Positions 3,285-62,377 of a stretch of DNA of 64,000 bases are shown piece by piece. Location: positions 2,147,501 through 2,211,500 of the forward strand of contig NZ_CP152017.1 of assembly GCF_038618305.1 (NCBI RefSeq), given 5' to 3'. The number at the start of each line of letters is the position of its first letter. The stretch's first letter is position 1. Source of the stretch: Sporosarcina sp. FSL K6-2383. Lineage in GTDB: Bacteria; Bacillota; Bacilli; Bacillales_A; Planococcaceae. Both the position numbers and the translations under genes were made by a program. The notes below the pieces were generated by a model, which worked only from the letters and a program-made list of their open reading frames with translations, was not told where the DNA came from and searched no databases.

Positions 3285-4769
3285 TTGTTGCAACAGAAAT
3301 TTATAAAAATATTTCTAGCATTCACACTCGTAATGGGGATGACCTTTACTTTTTTTACAGAGCATGCGGCGGCCAAGACAGCAATTGCTTATTCAGGTTT
3401 GCAAAGCTCTGTTGATGCCATTCTACTGGATAACAAGATGAAGGGAGTCTCGAGCAGTGTAGTGATTCGTAAAGCATCCACTGGAGAGATCATTTATCAA
3501 TCCAACGCAGATCAAGCCATTACGCCGGCATCGACGTTGAAAATATTGACAGCGGCAGCAGCACTTGAAACATTGGGTGAAAATTATCAGTTTAAAACTG
3601 AAGTATTGACGAATGGAAAAGTGGCAAAGGGGACATTGAAGGGCAATCTCTATGTTCGTGGGACAGGCGATCCGACGTTGTTGAAAAGTGATTTTGATCA
3701 TTTAGCTACCCAACTAGCTAAACGAGGTGTGAAAAGAGTTGCCGGTAATTTAGTAGGAGATGATACCTGGTTTGATACGGTTCGTCTGTCACCAAGTATT
3801 GACAAAATGGATGAGACCTATTATTATGCAGCGCAAATTTCTGCTTTAACGGTTTCTCCGAACACTGACTATGATGCAGGGACTGTTATTGTTGAGGCGA
3901 AGCCTACTACACGTGGGAAAGTGCCCAAAGTCACCTTGACACCAGCAACAGCTGTTGTACAAGTTGTCAATCGTGCTAAAACGGTTCCCAAAGGCTATAA
4001 AAATACGGTGAAGATTGAACGCCAGTACAAGACAAACAAAATTGTCATTACGGGCAATATGCCGATTGGCTCTACAGGTAAGAGAGAGTGGGTAACGGTG
4101 TCCAATCCAACCGCCTATGCACTCGATGTTTTCAAAAAATCATTAGCGGTGAAAGGAATAACATTTATTCCTTCATCTAAAACAATTCGTGGTAAAACAC
4201 CGGTGAACAGCCAAGTGCTAGTCGTTAAAAATTCAATGCCGCTGAAAAGTTTAATGCGACCATTTATGAAACTGAGCAATAATTCGCATGCGGAAGTGCT
4301 AGCAAAGGCGATGGGGAAAAAGCAATATGGAGAGGGGAGCTGGGGTGCTGGTCTACAGGTGATGCAGGATTATGCACAGTCTGTTGGTTTAGATACGAAC
4401 GAATGGATATTTGAAGACGCTTCAGGCATGTCACATGCTAATAAAATCACCTCTGCGCAATTGACAGAGTTACTCTATCAAGTACGTACAGCACCGTGGT
4501 ATAGCTCGTTCTCGCAGGCATTGCCAGTTGCAGGTTCGCCTGAACGCTTAATTGGTGGAACATTGAAAAGTCGTTTAACAGCAGCACCGGCAAAGGGAAA
4601 GGTGTTTGCAAAAACTGGGAACTTGAACAAAGTTAGTGCGCTGGCAGGCTATGCACAAAACTCGGATGGTGAATTACTAATTTTTAGTGTGTTGACACAA
4701 GACCAAACAGTTAGTACGGTACCCATTTTAGATCGAATTGCGACTGTCATTGCAAGCTCTAAAAAATGA
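3285..4769 (+). CDS. dacC: D-alanyl-D-alanine carboxypeptidase / endopeptidase, peptidase S13 (PBP4a type)
   Basis: Penicillin-binding protein of 494 residues that trims the terminal D-Ala of muropeptides or cleaves cross-links. A signal peptide (about 1-30, ending near HAAA) exports it. The three active-site motifs are present: SxxK at 83-86 (STLK), SxN at 331-333 (SNN) and KTG at 443-445. The long insert between SxxK and SxN is characteristic of the S13 family; B. subtilis DacC is nearly the same length. The start is TTG at 3285, chosen because AGGAG lies 9 bases upstream. The stop codon touches a structured repeat, and ilvA converges from the right. Confidence 0.9.
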   Translation: MLQQKFIKIFLAFTLVMGMTFTFFTEHAAAKTAIAYSGLQSSVDAILLDNKMKGVSSSVVIRKASTGEIIYQSNADQAITPASTLKILTAAAALETLGENYQFKTEVLTNGKVAKGTLKGNLYVRGTGDPTLLKSDFDHLATQLAKRGVKRVAGNLVGDDTWFDTVRLSPSIDKMDETYYYAAQISALTVSPNTDYDAGTVIVEAKPTTRGKVPKVTLTPATAVVQVVNRAKTVPKGYKNTVKIERQYKTNKIVITGNMPIGSTGKREWVTVSNPTAYALDVFKKSLAVKGITFIPSSKTIRGKTPVNSQVLVVKNSMPLKSLMRPFMKLSNNSHAEVLAKAMGKKQYGEGSWGAGLQVMQDYAQSVGLDTNEWIFEDASGMSHANKITSAQLTELLYQVRTAPWYSSFSQALPVAGSPERLIGGTLKSRLTAAPAKGKVFAKTGNLNKVSALAGYAQNSDGELLIFSVLTQDQTVSTVPILDRIATVIASSKK

Positions 4770-4854
4770 ATTACGCCTCTGCGTAATTGAGTCCAGATTT
4801 TTAATCGAGCTTGCTCGATTGACTCCTCTCAAAATCTGTGACATCCGCCGGAGG
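4769..4854. repeat. Structured 86-bp intergenic repeat, copy A
   Basis: It starts at the last base of the dacC stop. Stem 1 is AATTACGC/GCGTAATT (4769-4788). Stem 2 is AATCGAGC/GCTCGATT (4803-4820). Stem 3, CAGATTTT/AAAATCTG, encloses stem 2. The copy ends with GACATCCGCCGGAGG. A copy of exactly the same length lies at 62048-62133 with 75 of 86 identical bases, and most differences preserve pairing. Copy A is followed by one more long stem, 4858-4870 with 4884-4896. A repeated RNA or DNA element seems likely; function unknown. Confidence 0.8.
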
Positions 4855-4898
4855 CTTTATTTTCGTTCAGTAGGTCTTTTCTGCTGAATGAAAATAAA

Positions 4899-62029: not shown

Positions 62030-62047
62030 TGATGTGCTAAACAAATC

Positions 62048-62133
62048 AATCACGCCTCGGCGTGATTGCGTCCGGATTTTGAATTGAGCTTGCTCAATTC
62101 ACTCCTTTCAAAATCCGTGACATCCGCCGGAGG
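62048..62133. repeat. Structured 86-bp intergenic repeat, copy B
   Basis: Same length and stem order as the copy at 4769-4854. Stem 1 is AATCACGC/GCGTGATT, stem 2 AATTGAGC/GCTCAATT and stem 3 CGGATTTT/AAAATCCG. The 3' end GACATCCGCCGGAGG is identical. It starts 18 bases after the yojO stop, and the converging gene is telA, so it too sits between convergent genes. Confidence 0.8.
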
Positions 62134-62135
62134 AT

Positions 62136-62327
62136 TTGGGCCAACAGGATGTTGGTCACTCAGACGTTGCCGCAGGATGCGGAGAACATAGTCTGAGTTC
62201 CCCTATTCAGCCGTGGTTTGGCCCCCCCACCGAATTACAAATCTAGTTCGCATTCATCTCGCCACTTATAGAAGTGGGAGACTTCTGTAACTGACGCTTC
62301 GCTTTCAGTACAACTGCATTTACTGAA
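62136..62327. other. Multi-hairpin block attached to repeat copy B
   Basis: Several stems are visible: TTGGGCC (62136-62142) with GGCCC near 62220; CCAACA-GGA-TGTTGG (62141-62155); ACTCAGAC/GTCTGAGT (62158-62165 with 62191-62198) enclosing GCCGCA-GGA-TGCGG; CCACTT-ATAG-AAGTGG (62262-62277); and TTCAGTA/TACTGAA (62304-62310 with 62321-62327). The last resembles the stem that follows copy A, so about 170 bases look inserted. No ORF. It may be an RNA element or a mobile-element remnant. Confidence 0.6.
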
Positions 62328-62334
62328 TGAAGTT

Positions 62335-62377
62335 AAAAATCCAAAACCGCCTTATGAAGGGCGGTTTTGGATTTTTT
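62335..62377. terminator. Bidirectional terminator at the end of telA
   Basis: AAAAATCCAAAACCGCC pairs with GGCGGTTTTGGATTTTT around a 7-base loop that holds the telA stop. T-runs lie on both strands. Confidence 0.9.

What the first reader, a model, noticed from the sequence alone, without database searches (positions are those of the whole stretch)
4769..4854. An 86-bp intergenic repeat with covarying stems, present twice in convergent gaps
Copies at 4769-4854 and 62048-62133 have exactly equal length and 75 of 86 identical bases. Eight of eleven differences fall at four paired positions: stem 1 T-A to C-G, stem 2 C-G to T-A, stem 3 A-T to G-C, and one T-G wobble to G-C next to stem 2. So selection, or very recent copying with repair of pairing, preserves the fold. 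CTCC in the loop could also pair with GGAG at the 3' end as a pseudoknot. Both copies lie between the ends of two convergent genes, as expected of a dispersed palindromic element or a shared 3' RNA structure. I do not recognise it as a named Rfam family.
Basis: partly seen in the sequence, partly recalled or inferred. Interest (0 to 1): 0.78.

Follow-up and report, generated by a model that had tools for sequence, protein, structure and literature searches.

The report
Mobile nested hairpin repeat in Planococcaceae
The two matching 86-base stretches are parts of a larger jumping DNA element, built of interchangeable hairpin modules, that recurs well over a hundred times in this bacterial chromosome and in many relatives; its orientation tends to follow DNA replication, and the enzyme that moves it is unknown.

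Summary
A model built from 40 copies gives 141 matches in the 3.67 Mb chromosome, 124 at E<=0.001. The core tail occurs in 115 of 261 genomes of the family, up to 130 times in one. Covariation between copies is strong. The 86 bp are part of a modular unit: hairpins A and B, a GC-rich core and palindrome C, often with other hairpins nested inside, including the Rfam 'sRNA' Bacillaceae-1. Of 53 hits aligned to a congener, 14 (13 loci) have no A-B-core base there, and at least nine sites differ by a nested module, so this is mobile DNA. One empty site shows insertion without target duplication; three others allow none or a short one. Orientation opposes the replication fork in 102 of 141. At shared sites stem A and the outer B stem change without compensation, so the covariation seems to come from the source elements, not from selection at each site. 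No transposase gene with matching ends was found. Best reading: a non-autonomous palindromic element moving through single-stranded lagging-strand template, enzyme unidentified.

The parts
4766..4898 (+). Copy 1, whole unit (modules A, B, core, C), at the stop codon of ORF 3285-4769
   Evidence: Congener G014 has an unoccupied site here; G057 has a deleted remnant. The 3' limit (4894 to 4898) is uncertain because the end of palindrome C merges with the target
4769..4788 (+). Copy 1 hairpin A
   Evidence: Alignment A1 and pair counts
4791..4842 (+). Copy 1 hairpin B (outer stem GTCCAGATTTT/AAAATCTGTGAC with one bulged base; inner stem AATCGAGC/GCTCGATT)
4843..4854 (+). Copy 1 core ATCCGCCGGAGG
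4855..4898 (+). Copy 1 palindrome C (left arm about 4856-4870, right arm about 4884-4898)
   Evidence: Arm search, 14 of 16 positions complementary (row 75); coordinates read off
62045..62337 (+). Copy 2, whole unit with a Bacillaceae-1 module between core and C; end approximate
   Evidence: Read off; no empty site was tested for this copy, and the automatic arm search found no C partner for it (row 76)
62048..62133 (+). Copy 2, A-B-core as reported
62141..62207 (-). Bacillaceae-1 (RF01690) module in copy 2, on the opposite strand
   Evidence: cmscan 69.3 bits, gathering 35

Best explanation
The 86-bp repeat is the A-B-core part of a non-autonomous, modular, palindromic mobile element (about 130 bp when simple, up to about 350 bp with nested hairpins) spread through the Planococcaceae. 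SHOWN: dispersal, copy-number variation, sites unoccupied in relatives, nested modules present in one genome and absent in the other at the same site, orientation that goes with replication direction. INFERRED: copies move as single-stranded DNA that folds into the conserved hairpins, taken from and put into the lagging-strand template. The enzyme is unknown; a Y1 HUH transposase (IS200/IS605 or RAYT type) is the favoured, unproven candidate. My estimates: mobile modular repeat 0.93; replication-coupled single-strand route 0.45; Y1-type enzyme 0.3.
For: 141 matches in the own chromosome (150 of 2566 first-look candidates scored), 124 at E<=0.001, 135 after merging neighbours. In the genus 40 of 61 genomes, own included, have the tail, 0 to 137 copies; in the family 115 of 261 genomes and 11 of 19 genera. 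Of 53 hits aligned to congener G057, 14 (13 loci) have no A-B-core base there, and at least nine differ by a nested module. Site 3377558: flanks exactly contiguous in G057, no duplication; 1277530, 1299376 and copy 1 against G014 are compatible with none. Orientation opposes the fork in 102 of 141 (40 of 58 and 62 of 83, Fisher p 4e-7), 89 of 124 strong matches, 98 of 135 merged, and in 48 of 66 matches on positive-skew contigs of G057, partly the same sites. In tandem settings it follows the fork rather than the genes: 60 of 75 lie against genes that run with the fork, 6 of 7 lie along with genes that run against it (Fisher p 0.0009). Covariation. Passages on IS200/IS605: subterminal hairpins, guide tetranucleotide, no target duplication, lagging-strand template preference (PMC6006769, PMC7290912).
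Against: No Y1 locus examined carries the element's ends: of 29 congener loci (those returned for the best matches of a longer list) two had a core-like match with 2 or 3 mismatches more than 1 kb away; of 15 further loci one had such a match. Seven of 14 genomes that I picked for many copies have no Y1 match, and the own gene is broken. Convergent settings show no bias (9 against the fork, 13 with it). Direct repeats between the flanks exceed all 300 shuffles at four of 66 length-and-offset tests (for example 3-mers 10 against 4.3, 4-mers 9 against 3.2), which leaves room for short target duplications. Most element-free sites are not clean: of 21 printed, five had no extra base at the joint, two of these with C-like remnants. 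Target pairing is poor at 1299376. PMC7290912 itself reports no strand preference for the IS605 copies of its genome.
Confidence: 0.45

Rival explanations
1. A classical MITE moved in trans by a DDE transposase of some insertion sequence, with a short target duplication; hairpins are a by-product and the orientation bias comes from selection against one orientation in transcribed regions.
For: Size, copy number, mostly intergenic sites (3 of 141 inside an ORF) and empty sites fit. Three of the four clean sites allow a duplication of 2 to 4 bases or an A-run, and direct repeats between the flanks exceed all shuffles at four of 66 tests.
Against: One unambiguous site without duplication (3377558); no long terminal inverted repeats seen; orientation follows the fork even beside genes that run against it (6 of 7). 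DDE transposases were not searched for.
Confidence: 0.3
2. A functional structured RNA (UTR element or sRNA) kept by selection at many loci, as Rfam treats Bacillaceae-1.
For: Covariation between copies, G-T excess over A-C in hairpin A on one strand, many copies a few bases from a predicted start or stop codon.
Against: 21 of 61 congeners have no copy of the tail; orthologous sites without the element; uncompensated changes in A and outer B at shared sites. The kinds of neighbouring genes were not compared.
Confidence: 0.12
3. A structured RNA spread by reverse transcription (a SINE-like retroelement served by a group II intron or other RT).
Against: The own genome and G057, both with more than 100 copies, have no RT match, and 14 of 21 element-free genomes do. 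The RT could have been lost.
Confidence: 0.07

Closest known systems
IS200/IS605 end-only elements (PATEs)
   Same: Hairpins near both ends, at least one insertion without target duplication, T-rich short target, orientation as expected for the lagging-strand template, no coding sequence seen
   Different: No transposase gene with the same ends found; extra nested hairpins; far more copies than the single PATE of PMC7290912; Y1 match missing in 7 of 14 copy-rich genomes
REP sequences with RAYTs; CGTC-tagged REPs (PMC3733652)
   Same: Palindromes between genes at high copy number; a CGTC motif stands between A and B in the consensus; CGTC REPs too lack a known transposase
   Different: Modular unit of 130 to 350 bp, not a 20-40 bp palindrome; whether the CGTC here is more than coincidence was not tested; no Y1 gene flanked by it in the loci examined
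BOX elements of pneumococcus (PMC3049150)
   Same: Modular, stem-loop-forming, high copy number, variable middle modules, between genes
   Different: BOX is reported with terminal inverted repeats and target duplications and 60.8% on the leading strand; here one clear site lacks a duplication and 72% oppose the fork; no sequence comparison was made
Bacillaceae-1 RNA (RF01690; PMC2864571)
   Same: A module inside or beside many units meets the family's gathering score
   Different: The source paper's table lists it as an RNA, not cis-regulatory; here it behaves as an inserted module, on the strand opposite to its host unit in all 26 motifs found within A-B-core

Membership tests
IS200/IS605 PATE | Insertion without target duplication | tested here: inconclusive
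   Exact at one site (3377558), compatible at three others that also allow a short duplication; flank repeats above shuffles at some offsets
IS200/IS605 PATE | Fixed tetra- or pentanucleotide target flanking the left end | tested here: inconclusive
   TTAA, ATAAA and TAAA at three clean sites, ACAAC at one
IS200/IS605 PATE | Ends shared with a tnpA-bearing element | tested here: not met
   Own TnpB and Y1 loci, 29 congener Y1 loci and 15 more; not every Y1 locus of the genus was fetched
IS200/IS605 PATE | Preference for the lagging-strand template | tested here: met
   102 of 141 overall; no bias in convergent gaps
REP/RAYT | 20-40 bp palindrome with GTAG tag beside a RAYT gene | tested here: not met
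   Unit length and sequence; Y1 loci examined lack the element's ends
MITE | 15-30 bp terminal inverted repeats | tested here: not met
   Ends read ATCAATTACGCC... and ...GCTGAATCAAGTTAA; only a short imperfect likeness by eye
MITE | Target duplication | tested here: inconclusive
   Absent at one site, possible at three
BOX | boxA/boxB/boxC sequence relationship | not tested
   Architecture compared from passages only
Rfam Bacillaceae-1 | Covariance-model score above gathering | tested here: met
   For the adjoining module only, 69.3 bits; the 86-bp repeat itself gives no match

The most novel reading that the evidence does not exclude
A family of hairpin modules that nest in each other's loops (the Rfam 'sRNA' Bacillaceae-1 among them) moves through Planococcaceae as folded single-stranded DNA at the replication fork, choosing targets partly by pairing with the variable arm of palindrome C, with an enzyme that is neither of the two kinds looked for here (Y1 transposase, reverse transcriptase).
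Probability: 0.2. Interest if true: 0.78.

Novelty: new variant of a known kind. Interest (0 to 1): 0.5.

Why it matters
It accounts for a large repeat family between the genes of many Planococcaceae. It suggests that Bacillaceae-1, filed as an sRNA, is in these genomes a mobile nested module. It also warns that strong covariation among paralogous copies need not mean selection at each site. If the single-strand route holds, the element is a natural record of replication-fork direction, and its missing enzyme a concrete target.

Tried and rejected
Known RNA family for the 86 bp: none. Plasmid or phage cargo: no match in either collection. The own TnpB and broken Y1 loci as source: only three weak matches, E 0.02 to 0.06. 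A version with a gene between the arms of C: of 162 cores in G057, the window and the named loci, 113 had a partner arm within 400 bases, 47 none, 2 a weak distant arm, not followed up. RT as driver: absent in two copy-rich genomes. DDE transposases were not searched. Searches for a printed description; in the listings I saw none of this repeat (open-licence papers only; two papers held a 12-base string of it, on unrelated subjects by their titles).

Rows dropped before counts: alignment A1 holds 39 of 54 distinct fragments, those whose hairpin A passed a threshold, plus copy 1. The ortholog test used 20 of 53 sites, with at least 50% coverage and 80% identity, so it cannot show how conserved the element is; gapped pairs (A 1, B 4, C 29) were set aside. 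Context counts leave out 8 of 141 (3 inside ORFs, 5 unresolved; genes were predicted by a simple ORF rule). Some of the 53 alignments, such as 65 and 66, are poor. Seventeen of the 141 matches have E above 0.001, and a few neighbours are pieces of one unit.

Full report
OBSERVATION. The two copies are as described: equal length, 75 of 86 identical, four compensated pairs. Copy 2 folds better than all 200 shuffles on both strands; copy 1 does so on the + strand, while 4 of 200 shuffles match its - strand.

COPIES. The window lies in a contig of 3,667,500 bases. BLAST gave 44 rows, 40 long matches and four short ones on the opposite strand (40 of 163 candidates scored). The 16-base tail with up to two mismatches occurs 77 times forward and 63 reverse, against 0 and 1 for the reversed control. 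A covariance model from 40 copies gives 141 matches at E up to 1 (150 of 2566 candidates scored, so possibly a lower bound), 124 at E up to 0.001, 135 after merging neighbours. In the genus 40 of 61 genomes, own included, have the tail with up to one mismatch, 0 to 137 times; of 40 genomes from elsewhere in the class one has a single match. In the family 115 of 261 genomes and 11 of 19 genera have the 17-base tail. Named hits include Sporosarcina, Lysinibacillus, Psychrobacillus, Metasolibacillus, Solibacillus, Rummeliibacillus, Siminovitchia and two Bacillus records (partial list).

ANATOMY. A typical unit reads: hairpin A, hairpin B with an inner hairpin, the core ATCCGCCGGAGG, then palindrome C, whose arms differ between copies yet match each other (90 copies with a recognisable A had at least 13 of 16 arm positions complementary). 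Thirty-five of 141 matches have an A-B-core span of 115 nt or more. A motif scan of the own stretches found 67 Bacillaceae-1-like motifs: 26 within A-B-core, 21 within 350 bases after it, 20 elsewhere; all 26 inner ones and 19 of the 21 others run opposite to the host unit. A second nested module (N2) gave 21 motifs, 16 in or just after a unit. Bacillaceae-1 itself occurs in 55 of 68 congeners; the own genome has 61 matches with only 63 of 497 candidates scored, so a lower bound. The control set gave a match in Bacillus subtilis.

MOBILITY. Against G057 (flanks about 91% identical at the 20 sites) 53 hits could be aligned. Fourteen of them (13 loci) have no A-B-core base in G057; at one of these (1438323) an arm of C remains. 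At least nine show a nested module in one genome only (hit numbers 23, 55, 63, 64, 68, 87, 88, 90, 130). Copy 1 is unoccupied in G014 and a deleted remnant in G057. Of 21 sites printed for their joints, five had no extra base between the flanks, two of these with C-like remnants. Of the three clean ones, 3377558 is exact without any duplication; at 1277530 the flanks share ACAT, so none to four bases could be duplicated; at 1299376 one base differs and TAA is shared. Copy 1 lies in an A-run, and G014 has one extra base. At the other element-free sites 4 to 60 or more bases of unlike DNA stand in G057, so loss of target on insertion and later decay cannot be told apart. Across 90 copies direct repeats between the flanks exceed all 300 shuffles at four of 66 length-and-offset tests, uncorrected.

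COVARIATION. Over 40 copies 98.2% of cells pair and 12 of 32 pairs vary on both sides, the pseudoknot's four pairs being among the 32. Four of five measures exceed all 500 shuffles; further pair types are reached by 2 of 500. Sliding the partners by 1 to 3 columns drops pairing to 29-43%. The alternative fold, core with the loop of A, pairs in 93.1% of cells for that helix with one pair varying on both sides. At 20 shared sites A has 15 single and 0 double changes in 179 pairs, outer B 6 and 0 in 124, C 20 and 6 in 195. So A and outer B are not seen to be repaired in place, while C may be, by selection or by template switching in a palindrome (inference). In hairpin A, G-T outnumbers A-C 30 to 6 in copies against the fork and 14 to 2 in the others, which a replication-strand mutation bias would not give.

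ORIENTATION. GC skew of the fetched loci changes sign near 0.48 and 2.25 Mb. In tandem gene settings the element faces against genes that run with the fork (60 of 75) but along with genes that run against it (6 of 7). Divergent gaps: 21 against the fork, 8 with it. Convergent gaps: 9 and 13, which does not fit. Restricted to E up to 0.001 the figures are 89 of 124; 53 of 67; 6 of 6; 17 and 7; 7 and 12. In another genus, G147: of the 15 exact matches listed 8 are minus up to 1.14 Mb, one plus at 1.2 Mb and 6 plus beyond 3.2 Mb, with skew negative from 3.2 Mb; G155 shows 8 of 9 minus below 1.3 Mb and 6 of 6 plus beyond 3.39 Mb, but its skew is noisy. I chose these two; the lists of G138 and G142 show no such simple split, and their skew was not examined.

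ENZYME. Y1 domains occur in 51 of 68 congeners. Of the 29 congener loci and 15 further loci examined none bears the element's ends; three have a core-like match more than 1 kb off. Seven of 14 copy-rich genomes have no Y1 match. The own genome and G057 have no RT match; 13 of 15 copy-rich and 14 of 21 element-free genomes do. The mover is therefore unknown; repeated loss of its gene after a burst is possible.

KNOWN SYSTEMS. Seen as passages: IS200/IS605 mechanism (PMC6006769, PMC7290912), BOX (PMC3049150), Bacillaceae-1 (PMC2864571, table entry; PMC9029176); as abstract and passages: REP super-families (PMC3733652). The element works most like a single-strand palindromic element and looks most like a BOX-type modular repeat. 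It fails the REP/RAYT test, the inverted-repeat test for MITEs and, in the loci examined, the shared-ends test for IS200/IS605; the target-duplication test is open.

Noticed in passing
window 4766-4769: In copy 1 the element's start (ATGAATT instead of the usual ATCAATT) supplies the stop codon TGA of ORF 3285-4769; with the usual base the frame would run on into the element. At the empty site G014 has a TAA in the corresponding place.
   Followed up: partly
L110, L121, L124, L127, L130 and others (NZ_JADHDX01...): Contigs named Arthrobacter beigongshangensis REN13 have 39-45% GC in the fetched stretches, and five G057 contig lengths equal lengths of that record (816682, 389817, 128995, 92394, 61089), so the record appears to be a misnamed member of the window's genus.
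   Followed up: partly
window 62141-62207: Rfam Bacillaceae-1 in this genus looks like a mobile nested module rather than an independent sRNA gene.
   Followed up: partly
own genome, copies such as 3025985, 38508, 2693790: Several reversed copies sit a few bases upstream of a likely ribosome-binding site and start codon, so they would form part of the 5' UTR of the next gene (seen by eye).
   Followed up: partly
L061: The only PF07282 (TnpB-like) match of the own genome; its surroundings show no likeness to the element beyond one weak 22-base match.
   Followed up: partly
genus genomes: Many congeners carry a Y1-domain ORF of about 190-260 aa, like RAYTs in length (recalled); what these act on was not examined.
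   Followed up: no
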